This document shows positions 34,044 through 61,043 of a DNA stretch of 64,000 bases, in pieces (the first letter of the stretch is position 1; every line of letters starts with the position of its first letter). This stretch comes from a virus: IMG/VR virus record IMGVR_UViG_3300042881_004673, positions 1-64,000 of that record. The stretch is one strand, 5' to 3'. The position numbers were made by a program, and so were the translations under genes. The notes under the pieces were generated by a model. It was not told the origin of the DNA and did not search any database. It worked only from the letters and a program-made list of their open reading frames with translations.

Positions 34044-34208
34044 ATGAAAAAAATAATAAGATTAACAGAATCAGAACTTATTTCATTAGTTAAAAGAGTA
34101 ATGAAAGAAGGTGAACTTACAGAAAAATGTTGGGCAGGATATACTCAAAAAGGTATGAAGACAATGTTTGGTAAGAGATACCCTAACTGTGTTAAGAAGA
34201 CAAAGTAA
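34044..34208 (+). CDS. Tag A minimal protein
   Basis: 54 residues. Tag A start (MKKIIRLTESELISLVKRVM, then K-E before Gly) is followed only by a 28-residue module CWAGYTQKGMKTMFGKRYPN plus CVKKTK. That Cys-Trp-x-Gly-Tyr...Asn-Cys-Val module recurs in many marine phage proteins as a terminal domain. This is the shortest cargo in the tagged set. It begins one base after the previous stop. Confidence 0.75.
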   Translation: MKKIIRLTESELISLVKRVMKEGELTEKCWAGYTQKGMKTMFGKRYPNCVKKTK

Positions 34209-34910: not shown

Positions 34911-35558
34911 ATGAAACACCTAATTAGAAAAATATTAAAAGAGGAGGTAAATAAGAAATACCCAAAACCAACACCAAACGTTGAAAAACTAATATATAAT
35001 TGGTTAAATAACTATTTTTCAGGATCTAAAATGTATCAAACAAAGGACTATGCGTTTAGCTATACTTTTGAATGGTGTAATAATGGTATGGAAATAGCTC
35101 AAGCTATTATAGATTTTAACCATGATCACGATGCTTGGGATGACAAAAGAAAAACAAGTGAACGAAATTTTGAATCAGGAGAATTTTCAATACCTGAAGA
35201 TATTATAGATGATTTAGAAACTGATATACCGGTAAGAAGAAACTATTTAAGATATATTGTAGAAGAATGGTTTGAAGATACATTGTTAGAAAAAATCAAA
35301 AGTGCATTGGGAAGAAATGATATATCAATAGATGATTTTTCTGAACACCCTAAAAAGTCTCAAGTTTGCGTTCCTCCTGTTTCAAAACCTGAAGGGGTTA
35401 CAGATGATGAAATGATTGATTTTATTGTCAAAAATACTTTATTTAGAAGAGATGAGTTAGAAAAAAGAATTGTAGATGAACGTGAATGGTTGGAAAAATT
35501 ATATACAGATAAACTGCGTAGCTCAGAAGTGGATAGAGTAAGAGGAAGTAGATGGTAA
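34911..35558 (+). CDS. Tag B protein
   Basis: 215 residues. Start MKHLIRKILKEE (L-K-E before Glu). The rest is acidic and helical, with WCNNGMEIAQAIIDFNHDHD and a late RRDELEKRIVDEREWLEKLY helix. No recognised domain. TATTTAT at 34898-34904 ends six bases before the ATG. First gene of a run of tagged genes linked by TAATG overlaps. Confidence 0.7.
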   Translation: MKHLIRKILKEEVNKKYPKPTPNVEKLIYNWLNNYFSGSKMYQTKDYAFSYTFEWCNNGMEIAQAIIDFNHDHDAWDDKRKTSERNFESGEFSIPEDIIDDLETDIPVRRNYLRYIVEEWFEDTLLEKIKSALGRNDISIDDFSEHPKKSQVCVPPVSKPEGVTDDEMIDFIVKNTLFRRDELEKRIVDEREWLEKLYTDKLRSSEVDRVRGSRW

Positions 35559-36004
35559 TGAGAAAACTTATTAAACACATATTAAAAGAAGAAGTATCTA
35601 AACAACAAATAGATAAGGGTATTGATATTGTTATTAACGGATTAAAAAAAGAATTTCCATTTGTTGTTGGTTGGAAATTACATGACAATTATGATGAATA
35701 TATAACAAGCATTTATATTGATTTGGTTGTTGAATATGAAAAAGTAAAAGAGTTCTATGGTTTAAAACCTAAAATGACGTATAGCCTTGAATATATTAAA
35801 AACAGACAAGTGGCATATGTCCTTACTCCATTTAAATATGAAGGCAATTTTGACCCATATATAGAGTCTCAAAAATTAAGTGAATATGTATTTGAAATGT
35901 ATGAATATATACCTGAAGAATTAAAGTTAGAAGAAAAGGATACGTATGGTTCTTCAAGGACTAACTATAAAGCATTAAAAGTTGATGATTTTATTTTTGT
36001 TTAA
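35558..36004 (+). CDS. Tag B protein
   Basis: 148 residues from ATG 35558 (TAATG with the previous stop; an in-frame ATG two codons upstream is less likely). Start MRKLIKHILKEEVSKQQ. The body is alpha/beta (IDIVINGLKKEFPFVVGWKL; IYIDLVVEYEKVKEFYG). Several neighbouring cargoes have similar size and alternating pattern and may be distant paralogues. Function unknown. Confidence 0.7.
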   Translation: MRKLIKHILKEEVSKQQIDKGIDIVINGLKKEFPFVVGWKLHDNYDEYITSIYIDLVVEYEKVKEFYGLKPKMTYSLEYIKNRQVAYVLTPFKYEGNFDPYIESQKLSEYVFEMYEYIPEELKLEEKDTYGSSRTNYKALKVDDFIFV

Positions 36005-36327
36005 TGAGAGGACTAATTAGATACATATTGAAAGAAGAAACAGAAGAAATTGACCAAAAGGTTATGAATTTTCTTGTGCGAAGATATGAAGTTAAAGAAA
36101 TAAATATTGACGACAATATTAGACTTAAAAGGATTCATTTCAAAGTAGATGATGATTATTATAATATTGGAACTTTTGATAATAAAAAAAGACAAGTAAG
36201 ATTGATTTTAAATATGTTAGAAGATAATAATGTTACAGAACCAATTGATAATTTTTCAAATGAAAACAATCCATATAGACAAAAAGTTATTAGAACAATT
36301 AAAAAGTTTTTATCCCAAGTAATGTAA
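36004..36327 (+). CDS. Tag B protein
   Basis: 107 residues, TAATG overlap with the previous stop. Start MRGLIRYILKEETEEID. The body has a beta hairpin (IRLKRIHFKVDDDYYNIGTF) and a Lys-rich helical end. No domain recognised. Confidence 0.68.
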   Translation: MRGLIRYILKEETEEIDQKVMNFLVRRYEVKEINIDDNIRLKRIHFKVDDDYYNIGTFDNKKRQVRLILNMLEDNNVTEPIDNFSNENNPYRQKVIRTIKKFLSQVM

Positions 36328-36761
36328 TGAAAGAGTTAATTAGACACATATTAAAAGAAGAAGAAAATGAAAACCTAAAAGAAAGGTTTGTTAGATCCGC
36401 CCAATCCATTCCTTATATTATCCAAAGTAATGTAGATTCAAATCTTTTTACAGAAATTGAAATTGGAAGTATTAATTATAATAACAATCATAACAGCATT
36501 GATGGTGAATTGTTAATAACATCTTGGTGTGATGATCCTGACCTTTTTTCGTTTACAAACCAACTGAAATTAGTTGATAAAGAATTGGACACAGTTTTAC
36601 TTAATTATTCATTTACAAGTAACGGTTCTTTTGGGAAAAAGAAAGGTAAATATAATAACTTGATGTGTTGGTTTATTGGTTGTGAATGGAGTGCTGAAGG
36701 TGATTATACAATGAAGATGAAATACCATTTTACGCAAGAAGAATATGATGATGGTGAATAA
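36327..36761 (+). CDS. Tag B protein
   Basis: 144 residues, TAATG overlap with the previous stop. Start MKELIRHILKEEENENLKER. The middle is beta-rich (IEIGSINYNNNHNSIDGELL) with Cys residues in LMCWFIGCEWSAEGDY. It overlaps the following large gene by eight bases, so the four genes are translationally chained. Confidence 0.68.
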   Translation: MKELIRHILKEEENENLKERFVRSAQSIPYIIQSNVDSNLFTEIEIGSINYNNNHNSIDGELLITSWCDDPDLFSFTNQLKLVDKELDTVLLNYSFTSNGSFGKKKGKYNNLMCWFIGCEWSAEGDYTMKMKYHFTQEEYDDGE

Positions 36762-40602: not shown

Positions 40603-41520
40603 ATGAAAATAAAATCAATCAATGTTATCAATGGAAAAAACAAATGGAGTGAGTCCAAAGATAAGCTTATTCATATGATTTTAGATTTGGGTGAATTTGA
40701 AGAAAAACCATCAGATAAAATAGAAGGATTTTACGAAAGAATAAAAGAATATTTACCATCATTAAAAAGTCACAGATGTTCTGAAGGAAAACCAGGAGGG
40801 TTTCTTAAAAGAATTAAAGATGGAACATGGATGGGACACATTATAGAACATGTGGCATTGGAATTACAAACACTTGCCGGAATGAATACAGGATGGGGAA
40901 GAACAAGAGGAGTTAAAGGACAAAAAGGAGTGTATAATGTTGTGTTTAATTATGAAAACAAAGACAGTGGAAAACTAGCCGCAAGAGAAGCATTTAATGT
41001 TGTGAATGATATTATAAATGATATAGATCCAAAAATAGATAGAATAGTTAAAAAATTAAAACCAAAAAACTTAAAAGAATCCATAAGAAGAATATTAAGG
41101 GAAGAAACCAACATTAAACCCATTCTAAACAATTTACTTAATATGTTGTTTGATGGATTTGATGATATCTATTATGATTGGGCTCAATATAATTGTGGAA
41201 TGGGTGTTTGTTGTGACCCATATGCTGTTGGGTTTGTTCTTCCAAAAAATAATTATGATGATTATTTATTCAAATTGGTTGATGGTAATAACTATGACGA
41301 TAATGGTAAATACTTTAAAGAAGTAATGGGTGAGTTACCTGAAGTATGTTATGAAATGCCTGATGTTAAAAACCCAAACTTTAATTTTATAATATTTTAC
41401 GAAGTGTTTGCCGAAGAAATTGAGGATTACTTGGGACGTAAAGGTAATTGGAAAATTGAGTTACTAGCTTTAATAAATGAAAAGTTTGGTTGTAAGGCCA
41501 CTAATATAATGTTTATATGA
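40603..41520 (+). CDS. Cyanophycin-synthetase N-domain fused through an internal tag B
   Basis: 305 residues. Residues 1-150 closely match the N-terminal domain of cyanophycin synthetase CphA: INVINGKNKWSESKDKLIHM, LGEFEEKPSDKIEGFYERI, RCSEGKPGGFLKRIKDGTWM, GHIIEHVALELQTLAGMNTG and WGRTRG. The ATP-grasp and Mur-ligase parts are absent. Residues 157-168 are tag B without its Met (LKESIRRILREE), followed by an unrelated acidic domain with CGMGVCCDPYAVG. The fusion probably arose when a tagged gene lost its start. A terminator follows. Confidence 0.78.
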   Translation: MKIKSINVINGKNKWSESKDKLIHMILDLGEFEEKPSDKIEGFYERIKEYLPSLKSHRCSEGKPGGFLKRIKDGTWMGHIIEHVALELQTLAGMNTGWGRTRGVKGQKGVYNVVFNYENKDSGKLAAREAFNVVNDIINDIDPKIDRIVKKLKPKNLKESIRRILREETNIKPILNNLLNMLFDGFDDIYYDWAQYNCGMGVCCDPYAVGFVLPKNNYDDYLFKLVDGNNYDDNGKYFKEVMGELPEVCYEMPDVKNPNFNFIIFYEVFAEEIEDYLGRKGNWKIELLALINEKFGCKATNIMFI

Positions 41521-44824: not shown

Positions 44825-45544
44825 ATGAAAAGAATTATAAGATTAACTGAATCAGATCTAACAAGGATTGTTAAACGTATAATAATGGAGGAGCAATGTT
44901 CTGCACCACCTCAATGGTTAATGAATTATCAACTCGACGGTAAATTAGGAAAGGGTGAATGTTCTAATTGGGAATGGAGAAAAGACACATATACTTTTTT
45001 ATTTATAAATCCTAAAGTTAAGATATTAATATTGAGTATTAATCCGAATGAGATTGAAGAGGATCAATTAAACGAACTTAAACAAATATTTGGTGAACCC
45101 AAAATTACGGAAAAATATTACACATTTAAATATACTTTCTCAAACCAAGAAGATGGTGGGGATTTAAATCAAACACTTGATAAATTACAAGGAAAGGTTC
45201 CATGGATCGCATCCCTTAACGAGTCTGACATAAGACGTATATTGGAAAACGCCTTCACTAAAATGAGAAGAAGGGATGGTGAACCTATTGTAAGAAAAAC
45301 GGATTTAGTAAAAGGTGTTATACATGATTTATCTATGAAAATGTCCAAAGAATATGGTTTGGATGAATATGAGGGTGATGATAACATTCCTGAGTATCTA
45401 ATGCCTTATCTTGATGAAATCTCTGAAGTTGTATCTAATATTGATACAATGTTAATTTGGGATGCTGTTTATGAATCCCTCGATACCCCCGAAATAAATG
45501 ATCTAATTGATAAAATTGTTGATGAATATGGCGAAGATAATTAA
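44825..45544 (+). CDS. Tag A protein
   Basis: 239 residues. Tag A start MKRIIRLTESDLTRIVKRII, then M-E before Glu. Residues about 25-110 form a small domain with Cys and Trp (QCSAPPQWLMNYQ; NWEWRKDTYTFLFIN). The C-terminal half is helical and acidic. No family recognised. TATTTAT at 44802-44808 is 16 bases upstream; the leader is nearly the same as that of the gene at 45861. A terminator follows. Confidence 0.75.
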   Translation: MKRIIRLTESDLTRIVKRIIMEEQCSAPPQWLMNYQLDGKLGKGECSNWEWRKDTYTFLFINPKVKILILSINPNEIEEDQLNELKQIFGEPKITEKYYTFKYTFSNQEDGGDLNQTLDKLQGKVPWIASLNESDIRRILENAFTKMRRRDGEPIVRKTDLVKGVIHDLSMKMSKEYGLDEYEGDDNIPEYLMPYLDEISEVVSNIDTMLIWDAVYESLDTPEINDLIDKIVDEYGEDN

Positions 45545-45860: not shown

Positions 45861-46226
45861 ATGTCAAAAATTATAAGATTAACGGAAAGAGATTTATCTC
45901 GTATTGTTAGACAAACGATTATGGAGATGGAATCCTCTAGTGAATTTACAAACCATACTGGTTCTCCTACTAAGGTATCTATAATCAAGTTTAATAAAAA
46001 AATGGATTATGACGGGGCTTTGTCCATGTTGAAAACATATGGATCAACATATCGTTTTCCAAACAATTGGGGTAGTATAAAAGACACATTTAATAGTGGG
46101 GAGTATTGGGATAGTACTACACATGGGACATACAACATATCATATTACAATATGAAAGATAAACAATTACATCATGGGCATAGACTGCATAAAAAATATT
46201 TAATATTAGTTAAAAAAAATAAATAA
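45861..46226 (+). CDS. Tag A protein
   Basis: 121 residues from ATG 45861; an upstream in-frame start lies in the promoter. Start MSKIIRLTERDLSRIVRQTI, then M-E before Met. The body has STTHGTYNISYYN and ends basic (GHRLHKKYLILVKKNK). TATTTAT at 45837-45843 is 17 bases upstream. Function unknown. Confidence 0.72.
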   Translation: MSKIIRLTERDLSRIVRQTIMEMESSSEFTNHTGSPTKVSIIKFNKKMDYDGALSMLKTYGSTYRFPNNWGSIKDTFNSGEYWDSTTHGTYNISYYNMKDKQLHHGHRLHKKYLILVKKNK

Positions 46227-46251: not shown

Positions 46252-46599
46252 ATGAAAAGAATTATAAGATTAACGGAAAGAGATTTAACAAGAATTGTTA
46301 GAAGAGTTATAAAAGAAAATGCTGATAAAACAAACATCTATTATAGGAGATGTGAGGGTGGTTACGGTTTAATTGAACCCGAAAGTTTTGAGTTTTTACC
46401 TGGTGATGATAAATTTATAAAATTCCTTAGAAAACCTGATCCTAATTTTGATAATGGAAATAGTAAAAGTATTGGTAAGTGTCTTGCTTATGAAGAACCA
46501 ATGGAAGGGTTATGTTTTGATATAATTGTTGAAGAAGGTGAAGGTGGTAGAAAAATTGCTTATAGTGGAATTGATTGTGAGACAAGGGAAAGATGGTAG
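46252..46599 (+). CDS. Tag A protein
   Basis: 115 residues. Start MKRIIRLTERDLTRIVRRVI, then K-E before Asn. The body has a beta-rich, Cys-containing region (RRCEGGYGLIEPESFEFLPG; CLAYEEPMEGLCFDIIVEEG). No recognised domain. The terminator-like sequence at about 46630 keeps only its right arm and T-run. Confidence 0.72.
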   Translation: MKRIIRLTERDLTRIVRRVIKENADKTNIYYRRCEGGYGLIEPESFEFLPGDDKFIKFLRKPDPNFDNGNSKSIGKCLAYEEPMEGLCFDIIVEEGEGGRKIAYSGIDCETRERW

Positions 46600-47078: not shown

Positions 47079-47133
47079 GTTTTTTTATTTTTTTTTTTGA
47101 ACATAGAAGTATTTATAAATAAATTAAAATATT

Positions 47134-47778
47134 ATGGGAAGAATTATAAGATTAACGGAAAGAGATTTAACAAGAATTGTTAGAAGAGTTATTAGAGAGG
47201 AACAAACAAATGTTAATGATGATTATTATTTTATTGACGAAAAAAGTATTTATGAACCACAATATGGGTATGGTGGTGGTAATGCGTTCCAAACTGTAAG
47301 AGGAACAGAAGTTTGGTTGAATAATGCCGCTCAGACATCATGGCCTGCGGGTGATGCGGTTAAAACAAAAAAGGCGGCACAAAAACTTATAAAAGCTTTA
47401 TCAGGATTAGATATTAGCGGAAGTGGTGCCAAGTTGGCTCAAGAAGTTGCAACCGAATGGAAAACATACGGTTTGATTGATCAAAATGAATTTTTAAGGC
47501 AGTGGGATGTGTTAGCAGCAAAACAAGGAGAATATTTCAACCTTAGTGGCGGGAACATGTTTAAATGGATGTCACCTTGGGAAGAATTGTTTGATGATAA
47601 TGAGCATGATATTGCAAGTCAAATGATTGATCATAGTATAGCAAGAGTTAAAACTTACTGTCAACCTTATGCGGATCAAAAAACTAAAGCCGCAAGAGGT
47701 GTTGGAACATATTCTAAAAATGTAATTTGTGATTTGTTTGTAACTAATGATCTAAGAAGTCCTATGTTTAAAGACTAA
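47134..47778 (+). CDS. Tag A protein
   Basis: 214 residues. Start MGRIIRLTERDLTRIVRRVI, then R-E before Glu. The body has KAAQKLIKALSGLDISGSGA and a Trp-rich helical centre (LRQWDVLAAKQGEYFNLSGG). No recognised domain. The promoter and tag DNA (about 47110-47200) is nearly identical to that at 48553-48643. TATTTAT at 47110-47116, 17 bases upstream. Confidence 0.73.
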   Translation: MGRIIRLTERDLTRIVRRVIREEQTNVNDDYYFIDEKSIYEPQYGYGGGNAFQTVRGTEVWLNNAAQTSWPAGDAVKTKKAAQKLIKALSGLDISGSGAKLAQEVATEWKTYGLIDQNEFLRQWDVLAAKQGEYFNLSGGNMFKWMSPWEELFDDNEHDIASQMIDHSIARVKTYCQPYADQKTKAARGVGTYSKNVICDLFVTNDLRSPMFKD

Positions 47779-47790
47779 TAAAATTTATAA

Positions 47791-47820
47791 CCCCATTTTC
47801 TAATAAGAGTGGGGTTTTTT
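47791..47820 (+). terminator. Intrinsic terminator
   Basis: CCCCA (47791-47795) pairs with TGGGG (47810-47814), with an inner TCT/AGA pairing and a T-run. Same type as at 45551 and 49947. Confidence 0.75.
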
Positions 47821-47963: not shown

Positions 47964-48533
47964 ATGAAAAAAATTATAAGATTAACAGAAAATGATTTGT
48001 ATAGAATTGTTCGACAAGTTATTAGTGAAGAAGAAGTTTCTTATAATGTATTAAACAAATACTTAATATCTAAACCAGAGTTAATACCGTTATATCAAGA
48101 GATTGAAAAAGTTCTTGGTGATAAATTTACTGAAAAACATTTTACCGATGAAATCAAATATTCGGGAGGATTAAAAGAACTAAGTGGAAAACTTTTACCA
48201 AAAACTATTAATTCTTTTAATTTGTTAAAAAGCAAATTTCCTAATATAACCTATTCAGATAAAAGTTATCGTACTTATAAACTTCAAAAAGATATGTTTT
48301 TAGATAGCGCTAAATCACACGGAAATACTATTTCAGGTGGGCTAATTCAAGCGGCTTTACCTGGATTTAGTCAACACCACACAGGAAAATCTTTAGACCT
48401 TGCTAATTATAAAAAAAATGGAGTTTCACAATTAACACCTGAAATATTACAAAAATATAATTTTTCACTTCCATACCAATATAAAACATCATTCAGAATG
48501 GCAGAACCTTGGCACATATATTTAAATAACTAA
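47964..48533 (+). CDS. Tagged M15 (VanY-like) D-Ala-D-Ala peptidase
   Basis: 189 residues from ATG 47964. Tag A start MKKIIRLTENDLYRIVRQVI, then S-E before Glu. Zinc site of M15 peptidases: S136-x-H138-x-x-G141-x-S143-x-D145 (GFSQHHTGKSLDL) and E181-P-W-H184 (AEPWHIY). KSYRTYKLQ at 100-108 is the usual upstream motif. It should cut D-Ala-D-Ala or related peptide bonds in peptidoglycan and may help entry. TATTTAT at 47952-47958 ends five bases before the ATG. Confidence 0.85.
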   Translation: MKKIIRLTENDLYRIVRQVISEEEVSYNVLNKYLISKPELIPLYQEIEKVLGDKFTEKHFTDEIKYSGGLKELSGKLLPKTINSFNLLKSKFPNITYSDKSYRTYKLQKDMFLDSAKSHGNTISGGLIQAALPGFSQHHTGKSLDLANYKKNGVSQLTPEILQKYNFSLPYQYKTSFRMAEPWHIYLNN

Positions 48534-48576
48534 TTTTTTTTGAATATATAAGTATTTATAAATAAATTAAAATATT

Positions 48577-49110
48577 ATGGGAAGAATTATAAGATTAACA
48601 GAAAGAGATTTGACTCGCATCGTTAGAAGAGTTATTAGAGAAAATGAAGAAGAGTGGATTGACCAATCACAAGATATGGATGATGAATCAGACTTTTCAA
48701 AAATGGAACTAGAACAAAGTAGTAAAGAGGCGACAGAACAATTGAGTCCTGAAGAGCAAGATATGTTACGTGATTTTATAGAAAGTAACGGTATTGAATC
48801 TTTACAATCAATAGTTAAAGATTCTTTGGAGTCTGTATTGACGGAAGAGGATGAAAATGAAATGGGTGATAATGAATACGAAATAAGAAGTATCATTGAT
48901 AAAATTATTGGTTATAGTTCAATTGGTGCTGTATTAGCGATTGTTCCGGCAGCAATGTTTATAAGTGCGGGAATTGCTGCGGCTTTAGGTGTTTATGCTT
49001 TAGCAAGTAATACTCTTAGAGATTCCGCTTGGTTTAAAAGAAAAGGTTATGATAAATACCAAACAGGACACCATTACGGAAAATCCGATAAAAGTAGAAA
49101 CAACAGATAA
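48577..49110 (+). CDS. Tag A membrane protein
   Basis: 177 residues. Start MGRIIRLTERDLTRIVRRVI, then R-E before Asn. An acidic, helical middle (about 25-105) precedes a hydrophobic segment (about 110-145: GAVLAIVPAAMFISAGIAAA) and a basic tail. The layout matches the 60483 product. A packaged membrane-active protein could form part of a DNA-entry channel, though this is inference. TATTTAT at 48553-48559, 17 bases upstream. Confidence 0.72.
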   Translation: MGRIIRLTERDLTRIVRRVIRENEEEWIDQSQDMDDESDFSKMELEQSSKEATEQLSPEEQDMLRDFIESNGIESLQSIVKDSLESVLTEEDENEMGDNEYEIRSIIDKIIGYSSIGAVLAIVPAAMFISAGIAAALGVYALASNTLRDSAWFKRKGYDKYQTGHHYGKSDKSRNNR

Positions 49111-49112
49111 TA

Positions 49113-49607
49113 ATGAAAAGAATTATAAGATTAACCGAATCAGATTTAACAAGACTTGTTAAAAAAACTATTATGGAACTTGATAGGTCAACTTATGATA
49201 GAGCTGCTGATGTTGCAGGTGAAAAAGGATATAATAAATTGTCTGATAGATTTCGTGAATACGGAAAAGAATTTGGTTTAAATCAAGAAAGAGATAATAT
49301 CGTAATGGTTGTAGATCGTGGAGGTGAAGACCAAGTTTTAAACGTTAGAATTAATGATCTAAAAAGTGATTCTAACTATTCTATGAGTTTTACTTTGGAA
49401 ACAGAAGAACTTGATAAAGGAACTAAAAGAAAGTTTGAATTAAACAAATATTCGGATAACATAGAATTTTATCTGAATGGTCAATTTCCATCTTTGCCAC
49501 AGACAAGGAAAGATGCAAAAAAAGTTTTAAGGTTGTTTGAAAACAATGGAGTTGATGTAAGTAAAATTGACCCAAGATCAATATCATATGATGACAGTGG
49601 ATTTTAA
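49113..49607 (+). CDS. Tag A protein
   Basis: 164 residues, two bases after the previous stop. Start MKRIIRLTESDLTRLVKKTI, then M-E before Leu. The body is charged, with DNIVMVVDRGGEDQVLNVRI and a late helical region. No family recognised. It has no promoter motif of its own, so it is cotranscribed with the 48577 gene. Confidence 0.7.
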   Translation: MKRIIRLTESDLTRLVKKTIMELDRSTYDRAADVAGEKGYNKLSDRFREYGKEFGLNQERDNIVMVVDRGGEDQVLNVRINDLKSDSNYSMSFTLETEELDKGTKRKFELNKYSDNIEFYLNGQFPSLPQTRKDAKKVLRLFENNGVDVSKIDPRSISYDDSGF

Positions 49608-49631: not shown

Positions 49632-49919
49632 ATGAAAAGAATTATAAGATTAACTGAATCAGATTTAACAAGATTAGTTAAACAAGTTATTAGTGAAAAC
49701 TACGAAAACTCATTATACTCAGATATTATGGAACTAATAAAAAATTCTAACTCAAGTCATGAAGAAACCATTAGTGTTTTAAATTCTATTGTTGATGAAA
49801 TGTCTTCTTCAAGGAGATTAAGACGAGATGTAGAAAAAAGATTTCGTGATGATAATGAAATCACAAGTAATGATCCACGATATCTTTACGACATGGGACG
49901 TGGAGTATCAGGTCATTAA
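49632..49919 (+). CDS. Tag A protein
   Basis: 95 residues. Start MKRIIRLTESDLTRLVKQVI, then S-E before Asn. Short helical cargo (LYSDIMELIKNSNSSHEETI) ending DMGRGVSGH. Followed by a terminator. Function unknown. Confidence 0.7.
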   Translation: MKRIIRLTESDLTRLVKQVISENYENSLYSDIMELIKNSNSSHEETISVLNSIVDEMSSSRRLRRDVEKRFRDDNEITSNDPRYLYDMGRGVSGH

Positions 49920-49946
49920 AAATTAATAAATAAAATTTTTATAAAA

Positions 49947-49976
49947 CCCCATTCTCTAACAAGAGTGGGGTTTTTT
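49947..49976 (+). terminator. Intrinsic terminator
   Basis: CCCCA (49947-49951) pairs with TGGGG (49966-49970), with inner CTCT/AGAG pairs, then TTTTTTGTTT. Near copy of the one at 45551. Confidence 0.8.
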
Positions 49977-51089: not shown

Positions 51090-51177
51090 AAAAAAATAAA
51101 TAATTAATAATAAAAGTGAGATTTTTTGCAACATCAACATATTTATTAATAAATTAAAACAAATAAATTAAAACATT

Positions 51178-51504
51178 ATGGGAAAAATAGTAAGATTAAC
51201 TGAATCAGATTTAGTTAGAATTGTAAAAAGAGTAATTAATGAAGGTCTGAGTACAGCACTTATGGCACCATTAACTGTTGGTGGTAAAACATATCAAGTG
51301 CAACTTTTTGGTAGAGATACGGTTGCTTTTGTTAGTAAAAATGATGTAAACACTGAGATTAAAGACAGAGATCTAATTGGAAAACTTAATACGGCGGCCG
51401 GATTTGCTTATGAAGCAATTCCAACATCAACCGGAACAGCGTCAGTTGGGTATATTAAAAATCACTGTTCTAAATACGGTAATCTTTGTAGTAAATTACC
51501 ATAA
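51178..51504 (+). CDS. Tag A protein, paralogue of the next gene
   Basis: 108 residues. Start MGKIVRLTESDLVRIVKRVI, then N-E before Gly. The first 69 bases are identical to those of the gene at 51633; the cargo then differs but keeps similar order (VGGKTYQVQLFGRDTVAFV and NGKKYNLLVYGNGTVAYD). TATTTAT at 51140-51146. Function unknown. Confidence 0.72.
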   Translation: MGKIVRLTESDLVRIVKRVINEGLSTALMAPLTVGGKTYQVQLFGRDTVAFVSKNDVNTEIKDRDLIGKLNTAAGFAYEAIPTSTGTASVGYIKNHCSKYGNLCSKLP

Positions 51505-51632
51505 TGGTAGTTGGGTTTACCAAAGATCTTTATAATTAAAATAATATTTAAAATCCCCACATTAAAATTAAGATTGTTGGGTTTTTTTAAAACATAAACA
51601 TATTTATTAAAAAATTAAAAAATTAAAACATT

Positions 51633-51929
51633 ATGGGAAAAATAGTAAGATTAACTGAATCAGATTTAGTTAGAATTGTAAAAAGAGTAATTAATGAAGG
51701 TACATCTTCTGGGCCATTCATAGTTAATGGTAAAAAGTATAATCTATTAGTTTATGGAAATGGAACAGTTGCGTACGATGATGGTATGGGTAGGGGAGTT
51801 ATGGACCCCGCTATGATTAAAAAATTAAACGCTCTGTCTGGAATGGATATGCCCAGTACCGGAGTCGTAGAAGTAAAGAAACTTATGTCATACCCCAAAC
51901 TTTATATGTGGTATAATCATCAACAATAG
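51633..51929 (+). CDS. Tag A protein, paralogue of the previous gene
   Basis: 98 residues. Same tag as the 51178 product, identical in DNA for 23 codons. Cargo begins TSSGPFIVNGKKYNLLVYGN, with a KLNALSGMD segment parallel to KLNTAAGFA in its partner. TATTTAT at 51601-51607. This pair shows recent duplication followed by divergence, or swapping, of cargo. A terminator follows. Confidence 0.72.
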   Translation: MGKIVRLTESDLVRIVKRVINEGTSSGPFIVNGKKYNLLVYGNGTVAYDDGMGRGVMDPAMIKKLNALSGMDMPSTGVVEVKKLMSYPKLYMWYNHQQ

Positions 51930-55730: not shown

Positions 55731-55750
55731 TCTAACTAAATTTAAATCAA

Positions 55751-55778
55751 ACCCCGCCTAATCAGTGGGGTTTTTTAT
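55751..55778 (+). terminator. Intrinsic terminator
   Basis: ACCCC (55751-55755) pairs with GGGGT (55767-55771), followed by T-run. It lies directly before the TATTTAT motif of the next tagged gene. Confidence 0.72.
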
Positions 55779-55798: not shown

Positions 55799-56233
55799 AT
55801 GAAAATCATTATAACGGAATCTCAATCGGGCGTAATTAAAAGATACGAAAGAATGGTTAGGAATATAAAAAAAAGTATTTCTGAAAATGTGTCAAGATCG
55901 GAAAAAATAAAAAAATTTTTAAAAGATAAACTGAATATTGATTTTACAAATGGAATCAAACAAATAACATCTCAAGAGGATATCCCACGAGTTTTTATTG
56001 ATGACGCTTTAAGTTGGGGGGAGTTAAAAAAGTCTTTAAATTTTTGGGGACCTATGTATCTATTTGAACTTGAAAGTCATAAAATTTTATATCAAGATAG
56101 AGGTGATTTTGAATGGTTTATGGATGAAAATGGTCATGAATATGTTGATGATGAAATTACTGAACATCTTGGGATTGGAATTATGGGGTTAAGATTCTCA
56201 GATATTGTTGACACATATTTTGAGGAAAAATAG
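55799..56233 (+). CDS. Tag C protein with WGPMYL domain
   Basis: 144 residues. Start MKIIITESQSGVIKRYERMV, ending I-S-E before Asn at about residue 32. The remainder is the domain shared with the 52026 and 52823 products (SRSEKIKKFLKDKLNIDFTN, FWGPMYLFEL, LYQDRGDFEWF, MGLRFSDI). Here tag plus domain form the minimal gene. TATTTAT at 55787-55793 ends five bases before the ATG. Confidence 0.74.
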   Translation: MKIIITESQSGVIKRYERMVRNIKKSISENVSRSEKIKKFLKDKLNIDFTNGIKQITSQEDIPRVFIDDALSWGELKKSLNFWGPMYLFELESHKILYQDRGDFEWFMDENGHEYVDDEITEHLGIGIMGLRFSDIVDTYFEEK

Positions 56234-56741: not shown

Positions 56742-57068
56742 ATGAGAAGAGATATAAGACTAACAGAAAGAGATTTAACAAGACTCGTTAAAAGAATTGT
56801 TAGAGAAGAAGATGAATTTGATATAGAACAAACAGTTATGGACGCAGGAGAATTTGAAGTTGAAGATATCCCTGAAGAATGTAAAGGGAATGACCCTGGA
56901 ATGTCAAAAATTGATATGTTAACTGGATGTATTGGTAGTATAACAAAAAAATCAACGTCTTTAACGTCGGCATTAACGGCTCTAACCGCCCTATTGACTA
57001 CGGCTGAGACTGAATCTGCCGCTAGCACTGTTGCAGAGTCAAGAAGAAGAAGATATAGAAATTATTAA
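56742..57068 (+). CDS. Tag A protein with small hydrophobic segment
   Basis: 108 residues. Start MRRDIRLTERDLTRLVKRIV, then R-E before Glu. Acidic stretch, then a Thr/Ala/Leu-rich helix (TSLTSALTALTALLTTAETE) and an Arg-rich end (SRRRRYRNY). The Arg-rich end resembles part of the 60483 product (SRRRYGRYL). TATTTAT at 56717-56723, 18 bases upstream. A terminator follows. Confidence 0.7.
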   Translation: MRRDIRLTERDLTRLVKRIVREEDEFDIEQTVMDAGEFEVEDIPEECKGNDPGMSKIDMLTGCIGSITKKSTSLTSALTALTALLTTAETESAASTVAESRRRRYRNY

Positions 57069-60482: not shown

Positions 60483-61043
60483 ATGGGAAAAAAAATTAGA
60501 CTAACAGAATCTGCATTTCATTCTTTAATTAGAAGACTTGTTATTGAAACTAAAGAAAAAATGGACGACGAGGATTCGGATCATGATGATATGGACAATG
60601 AAAGTGATTACTCAGAAATGAGTAAGGAAATGGCGGTTAAAAAAATCTCCACTTATCTAAAAAGACGACTATCAAAAAATCAAGAAGAAAAATTAAAAGA
60701 TAAAATACAAGATAAAATAGAAATAGAGGAGTCAAGAAGAAGATATGGTAGATATCTAAATGAAGAGGATGACGAAGATAAAAATTTATCATCAAGAAAA
60801 TCTGACCGTAAAGAAAAAATTGTAATTGGGGCTGGCGCTGGTATATCAGTAACAGGAGCGGTTGCAGCACTTGGATCAATTATGGGTTATTCCGAAAGTC
60901 AATTGACAAGTTTAATTCACGATATTACAGCAAATGCTGGTCTTGGTAATTTTACAGGTCCTGTAACATACGCTATGATTGCCGCTGGTATAGCACTACT
61001 ATTTAAAGGTCTTGATATGAAACATAGAAGAAAAAACTCTTAA
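60483..61043 (+). CDS. Tag A-like membrane protein
   Basis: 186 residues. Start MGKKIRLTESAFHSLIRRLV, then I-E before Thr. Acidic middle (DDEDSDHDDMDNESDYSEMS), Arg-rich patch, then two hydrophobic helices (about 112-132 and 160-177: GAGAGISVTGAVAALGSIMG; YAMIAAGIALLFKG) and a basic end. Same plan as the 48577 product. TATTTAT at 60460-60466, 16 bases upstream. Confidence 0.7.
   Translation: MGKKIRLTESAFHSLIRRLVIETKEKMDDEDSDHDDMDNESDYSEMSKEMAVKKISTYLKRRLSKNQEEKLKDKIQDKIEIEESRRRYGRYLNEEDDEDKNLSSRKSDRKEKIVIGAGAGISVTGAVAALGSIMGYSESQLTSLIHDITANAGLGNFTGPVTYAMIAAGIALLFKGLDMKHRRKNS

What the first reader, a model, noticed from the sequence alone, without database searches (positions are those of the whole stretch)
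51140..51701. Promoter plus tag moves as a DNA cassette independent of cargo
The genes at 51178 and 51633 are identical for the first 69 bases (23 codons) and nearly so upstream through TATTTAT, then diverge abruptly. The genes at 47134 and 48577 likewise share about 100 nearly identical bases covering promoter and tag, with unrelated cargoes. The leaders of 44825 and 45861 also match. Inference: the tag DNA is a site of homologous recombination that lets new cargoes be captured under a ready-made promoter and targeting signal.
Basis: partly seen in the sequence, partly recalled or inferred. Interest (0 to 1): 0.78.

Follow-up and report, generated by a model that had tools for sequence, protein, structure and literature searches.

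The report
Swappable head-loading tags on phage proteins
A family of uncultured T4-like phages puts the same short N-terminal tag, which looks like the address that loads proteins into the virus head, on dozens of unrelated proteins, and comparing relatives shows the phages recombine within the tag DNA, so tags and cargo proteins are mixed and matched.

Summary
Genes 51178 and 51633 share an exact 82-bp repeat (-13 to +69), with 22/22 synonymous codons identical against 11 expected (p=1e-7). That pair is a poor example of cargo capture, because the two cargoes are diverged paralogues. The cargo of window gene 48577 is 94% identical in DNA to one in other phages, but its tag is only 73% identical and the upstream DNA is unrelated. 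In a contig pair 99% identical over 3.7 kb, one cargo is identical but carries a different tag, which matches 65/66 bases of an unrelated gene's tag in the same contig. In two permuted arrays, genes match one parent upstream (76/76 and 78/80 sites) and another in the cargo (88/89 and 92/92), switching inside the tag. Some cargoes sit on different tag families. The promoter is not an obligatory part: TATTTAT precedes many untagged genes, and several tagged genes lack it. In 67 of 68 cargoes the tag ends in [ILVM]xE, resembling the T4 prohead-protease motif (L/I-x-E), and 12 of 14 tag-bearing records carry that protease and a gp23 capsid gene. Best reading: T4-type capsid-targeting propeptides whose DNA doubles as a crossover site.

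The parts
51165..51246 (+). 82-bp block identical to 51620-51701: 13 bp leader + ATG + 23 codons, tag A of gene 51178-51504
   Evidence: exact repeat; 22/22 codons, p=1e-7
51620..51701 (+). second copy of the 82-bp block, tag A of gene 51633-51929
51140..51146 (+). TATTTAT promoter-like motif at -38 of gene 51178
51601..51607 (+). TATTTAT promoter-like motif at -32 of gene 51633
51247..51504 (+). cargo of 51178, distant paralogue of the 51633 cargo
   Evidence: E=7e-7
51702..51929 (+). cargo of 51633
47107..47156 (+). 50-bp exact repeat (leader + start of tag) shared with 48550-48599; gene 47134-47778; cargo also in L002-L005
48550..48599 (+). 50-bp exact repeat; gene 48577-49110, whose cargo is 94% nt identical in L064/L065 under a 73%-identical tag
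44825..44893 (+). tag A of gene 44825-45544 (TATTTAT at -23); no relative of the cargo found in viral contigs
45861..45929 (+). tag A of gene 45861-46226 (TATTTAT at -24)
46252..46320 (+). tag A of gene 46252-46599; tag close to 47134 but no shared promoter
47964..48032 (+). tag A of gene 47964-48533, cargo with VanY (D-Ala-D-Ala carboxypeptidase) domain
   Evidence: PF02557, E=3.2e-10
49113..49181 (+). tag A of gene 49113-49607; cargo family also in L022, L024, L027, L039, L041, L042
49632..49700 (+). tag A of gene 49632-49919; its last 20 or so residues also end L040_222, which has a tag-D start
56742..56810 (+). tag A of gene 56742-57068
60483..60551 (+). divergent tag A of gene 60483-61043
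47789..47816 (+). terminator-like hairpin (CCCCATT..TAATAAGAGTGGGG + T run) after gene 47134; similar ones at 49943-49974 and 55749-55773
   Evidence: 11 found vs 4.2 in shuffles
55799..56233 (+). gene with tag family D (MKIIITE..Q) carrying the same cargo family as tag-A genes L037_10711 and L040_3960

Best explanation
The tag is a T4-type capsid-targeting propeptide: about 22 residues, a basic stretch ending in [ILV]-x-E. Such a peptide would load unrelated proteins into the prohead and be removed by the phage's gp21-like (S77) protease; this functional step is inferred. Because the same 60-70 bp of tag DNA begins many genes, often in adjacent head-to-tail arrays, phage recombination within a genome and between co-infecting relatives crosses over or converts inside the tag. 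This reassigns cargoes to the tag and 5' context of the recipient genome; that exchange happens inside the tag is shown by comparison, the route (intragenomic or co-infection) is inferred. A terminator hairpin and promoter-like motif travel with the tag in some cases but are separable from it. 51178/51633 is an old tandem duplication whose tags have been homogenised recently.
For: Recombination: L066_3672 matches L064_4835 at 76/76 informative upstream sites and L064_3672 at 88/89 cargo sites, with the switch inside the tag; L064_4468 gives 78/80 and 92/92; L024_3637 gives 55/55 and 92/95. L024_3637 and L027_5636 have identical cargo DNA over the 190 bp shown from codon 24 but 14/66 tag mismatches (p=3e-11), and the L024 tag is 65/66 identical to that of an unrelated gene in the same contig. 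Window_48577 versus L064_3932: tag 18/66 mismatches, cargo 27/465, p=7e-7. Tags closer to an unrelated cargo's tag than to the orthologue's. Same cargo on a different tag family. Synonymous tag identity 0.66-0.69 versus 0.46 expected, higher within contigs (p=0.03). Targeting: [ILVM]xE at tag end in 67/68 cargoes, background 2.7% per position; conservation stops right after it. T4-type protease in 12/14 and gp23 in 12/15 records. The MCP propeptide region contains FLINEA and an MCP-adjacent protein starts with a basic stretch ending in KVLSEA/KVIKES. The gp21 motif L/I-X-E, and the proposal that CTSs let T4-like phages package varied proteins, are in PMC9026906.
Against: No virion proteomics or localisation: head loading and cleavage are inferred from motif and gene content. 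The residue after the putative cut is usually Q/E/N, whereas known gp21 products start with A or G in the cases I recall. The window's own contig is a fragment without the protease or MCP. Some orthologous pairs keep tag and cargo linked (L024_9357/L027_9677, L024_10785/L046_9785, L006/L016), and window_47134 versus L002/L004 tags diverge no faster than cargo (p about 0.4). Shuffling at gene starts also affects genes without tag A. All relatives are metagenome assemblies.
Confidence: 0.75

Rival explanations
1. Tags look alike only because the peptide is under purifying selection after ordinary gene duplication; no recombination at the tag.
For: Amino-acid constraint on the tag is very strong. 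51178/51633 have paralogous cargoes, so duplication did occur. 47134/48577 tags exceed the codon-usage expectation only weakly.
Against: Cannot give an identical cargo with a different tag in nearly identical contigs, tag more diverged than cargo between orthologues, or genes that switch parents inside the tag.
Confidence: 0.06
2. Genes shuffle as whole units at intergenic terminator-promoter motifs, as with the PeSLs described for T4-like phages; the tag just rides along.
For: Homology edges fall just upstream of many start codons, for genes with and without tag A. Terminator-like hairpins are enriched. L024_9357/L027_9677 share tag and cargo with unrelated upstream DNA.
Against: Does not explain switches inside the tag, tag swaps under an unchanged cargo, or abutting arrays that lack the motif. 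Probably operates alongside tag recombination.
Confidence: 0.12
3. The recombinants are metagenome assembly artefacts at repeated tags.
For: Exact repeats between tags reach 53-55 bp within L064 and L024.
Against: The L024 arrangement is reproduced in another IMG metagenome (L007, 99.96% over 4.5 kb). Repeats are shorter than typical short reads. Orthologue divergence tests such as window_48577 versus L064, L065 and L069 do not depend on one contig.
Confidence: 0.05
4. The tag is modular and recombining as described but is not a head-targeting propeptide; for example it is a scaffold or membrane anchor, or a host-directed signal.
For: No experiment on these phages; some cargoes (VanY peptidase) could act outside the head.
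Against: [ILVM]xE end in 67/68, T4-type protease and MCP in the same records, similar N-terminus on an MCP-adjacent protein.
Confidence: 0.2

Closest known systems
T4 capsid targeting sequence (CTS) of internal proteins IPI, IPII, IPIII and Alt
   Same: Short N-terminal peptide shared by unrelated proteins, ending in (L/I)xE, in phages with an S77 prohead protease and gp23-type capsid; suggested in PMC9026906 to be a mechanism by which T4-like phages package varied proteins.
   Different: Here about 22 residues rather than 10-20, no sequence similarity to the T4 CTS claimed, 5-17 tag-A matches per record plus several other tag families, and direct evidence of crossover inside the tag; cleavage and packaging not shown.
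PeSL / mobile regulatory cassettes of T4-type phages (Arbiol 2010; Comeau 2014; known here only through citations in PMC4503421)
   Same: Terminator-like hairpin plus promoter-like motif at borders of shuffled genes in T4-like phages.
   Different: The repeat here extends into the coding region, and recombination inside the coding tag also occurs where no such motif is present.
Identical N-termini of SPN3US gp53/gp54 propeptides (PMC5694885)
   Same: Identical N-terminal propeptide residues on otherwise diverged head proteins.
   Different: Two paralogues in one giant phage, not a large set of unrelated cargoes.

Membership tests
T4-type capsid targeting sequence | N-terminal peptide ending in (L/I)-x-E | tested here: met
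   67/68 nonredundant cargoes have [ILVM]xE, mostly I; conservation ends there
T4-type capsid targeting sequence | Shared by otherwise unrelated proteins | tested here: met
   67 cargo clusters
T4-type capsid targeting sequence | Genome encodes a gp21-type protease and gp23-type capsid | tested here: met
   Relatives: 12/14 records with PF03420 and 12/15 with PF07068; not found in the window's own 80-kb fragment
T4-type capsid targeting sequence | Carrier protein is in the head and the tag is cleaved | not testable with these tools
   needs virion mass spectrometry
PeSL mobile regulatory cassette | Composite stem-loop terminator + promoter at gene borders | tested here: inconclusive
   hairpins enriched 11 vs 4.2, TATTTAT motif before 33/90 genes, but absent before several tagged genes; the promoter class was not determined
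PeSL mobile regulatory cassette | Recombination breakpoints in the regulatory motif | tested here: inconclusive
   edges at gene starts for genes with and without tag A, but key switches lie inside the coding tag

The most novel reading that the evidence does not exclude
Tag DNA is maintained, at synonymous sites too, as a recombination landing sequence shared across a phage population. The coding tag would then serve both as head-loading address and as the joint of an open, rapidly reshuffled library of proteins delivered into hosts, with several interchangeable tag families.
Probability: 0.3. Interest if true: 0.8.

Novelty: new variant of a known kind. Interest (0 to 1): 0.62.

Why it matters
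If right, the tag marks, from sequence alone, a large and fast-changing set of proteins that these uncultured phages probably pack and inject, anti-defence candidates among them. It also gives a concrete mechanism, crossover in a shared coding address tag, for how a phage recruits new injected proteins. It makes the existing suggestion that CTSs are an evolutionary recruitment device directly testable.

Tried and rejected
No DNA match in annotated phages and no protein match for 51178 or 47134. Pfam and PHROGs name almost none of the tagged cargoes, VanY at 47964 excepted. No viral-contig relatives found for the 44825 or 47964 cargoes. The PF03420 search in the window's own fragment was empty and uninformative. 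AlphaFold of 47134 with 4 sequences gave pLDDT 35 and was discarded. The genome-contig scan gave one 4-kb contig labelled as an alphaproteobacterial MAG, too weak for a host call. Homology-edge counting did not separate genes with tag A from those without, so it is not used as evidence for tag-specific breakpoints. The tag strings were found in no paper of the library. The two papers on T4 mobile cassettes are not held.

Full report
Setting. The window is 64 kb of an 80,391-bp IMG/VR record. Nothing similar was found in 50,697 annotated phage records. Between about 44.8 and 60.5 kb some twelve genes start with the tag consensus MKRIIRLTE[S/R]DLTRIVKRVIxE (tag A); a further match is at 34044.

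Observation. 51178 and 51633 share an exact 82-bp repeat and 22/22 synonymous codons where 11 are expected. 47134 and 48577 share 50 bp exactly and a 95%-identical 40-bp leader, but their tags are only mildly above the codon-usage expectation. The cargoes of 51178 and 51633 are distant paralogues, so that pair records a duplication with a homogenised tag rather than capture of a new cargo. 46252 and 47134 have close tags with unrelated leaders, so the tag can match without the promoter.

Promoter. TATTTAT precedes 33 of 90 window genes, mostly at -22 to -26 or about -12, including untagged large genes such as 18478 and 21351. It is therefore a general promoter-like element and not part of a tag cassette as such. 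Terminator-like hairpins are enriched between the genes (11 vs 4.2 in shuffles).

(a) Cargo 48577 in L064/L065 is 94% identical in DNA while the tag is 73% and upstream DNA unrelated (p=7e-7). (b) L024 and L027 are 99% identical over 3.7 kb; the shared 175-aa protein has the same cargo but 14/66 tag mismatches, and L027 has an extra tagged gene beside it. The L024 tag is 65/66 identical to that of unrelated gene L024_9896, and L007 from another metagenome has the L024 form. (c) In L064 and L066 arrays of tagged genes are permuted; L066_3672 and L064_4468 match one gene upstream at 76/76 and 78/80 informative sites and another in the cargo at 88/89 and 92/92, with the change inside the tag. (d) A cargo on tag A in L037_6055 sits on tag D (MKIIITE) in L048_3829; another on tag A in L037_10711 sits on tag D in window 55799 and L023_2585; half of the 6055 cargo sits behind a third N-terminus in L045_1774. 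(e) In most orthologous families compared the tag is closer to that of an unrelated cargo than to its orthologue; in about four the linkage is kept (the comparison takes the best of many unrelated tags, so only cases with large gaps are weighed). Window_47134 versus L002/L004 does not show faster tag divergence.

Limits. Homology edges at gene starts occur for genes without tag A as well (27 of 44 vs 7 of 13; many of the former carry other tag families), so whole-gene shuffling goes on alongside. Strain-specific genes between L037 and L038 are more often tagged (6 of 7 vs 6 of 19, p about 0.02; counted by hand). Synonymous identity among tags on unrelated cargoes is 0.66 between and 0.69 within contigs against 0.46 expected from N-terminal codon usage of untagged genes (p=0.03 for within over between); shared recombination or a DNA-level constraint could both give this.

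Function. Across 67 cargo clusters conservation runs to an E at position 19 and then stops, with the residue before E the most variable of the tag. With genes recruited only on the first 14 positions, 67/68 have [ILVM]xE against 2.7% per position in other proteins. T4 gp21 cleaves after L/I-x-E and removes capsid-targeting propeptides from internal proteins (PMC9026906; PMC5694885). 12 of 14 tag-bearing records encode an S77 prohead protease and 12 of 15 a gp23 capsid protein; the rest are records of 38-80 kb. In those genomes the MCP N-terminal region contains FLINEA, and an MCP-adjacent protein begins with a basic stretch ending in KVLSEA or KVIKES. Head loading and cleavage are thus well supported by anatomy but not shown. 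All five records over 270 kb have one weak RecA-family match in a frame of 328-347 aa, perhaps UvsX-like, a possible recombinase.

Verdict. A T4-like capsid-targeting tag whose coding DNA is a crossover site; the kind is known (CTS, mobile cassettes), and the scale, the several interchangeable tag families and the resolved crossovers inside the tag are new here to my knowledge.

Noticed in passing
window 40603-41520: Cyanophycin synthase-like N-terminal domain (PF18921, E=1.7e-44) followed by an internal copy of a tag (NLKESIRRILREETN) and another region, as if two genes fused and kept the tag inside.
   Followed up: no
window 33566, 39965, 42147, 42665 (tag B MNLQENIRRILREE); 34911-36745 (tag C LIRxILKEE); 46662, 52026, 52823, 53662, 55799, 57144 (tag D MKIIITExQ): Further recurrent N-terminal tag families in the same window; B and C mostly end in ILxEE.
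   Followed up: partly
L004 6768-7382 (-): ORF that looks like a GIY-YIG endonuclease near the orthologue of window gene 47134; judged by eye only.
   Followed up: no
L067 2948-3484 and L068 2127-2663: The 48577-type cargo lies directly before ORFs that look like baseplate genes (gp25- and gp6-like, by eye), unlike in the window.
   Followed up: no
window 34044-34205 and L030 5234: Short shared C-terminal module (CWAGYTQKGMKTMFGKRYPNC type, 90% over 30 aa) on proteins with different tags.
   Followed up: no
L045 around 5726: Twelve bases of a resident tag start (ATGAAAAGAACT) lie just upstream of the incoming tag's ATG, a possible scar of insertion at a tag.
   Followed up: partly
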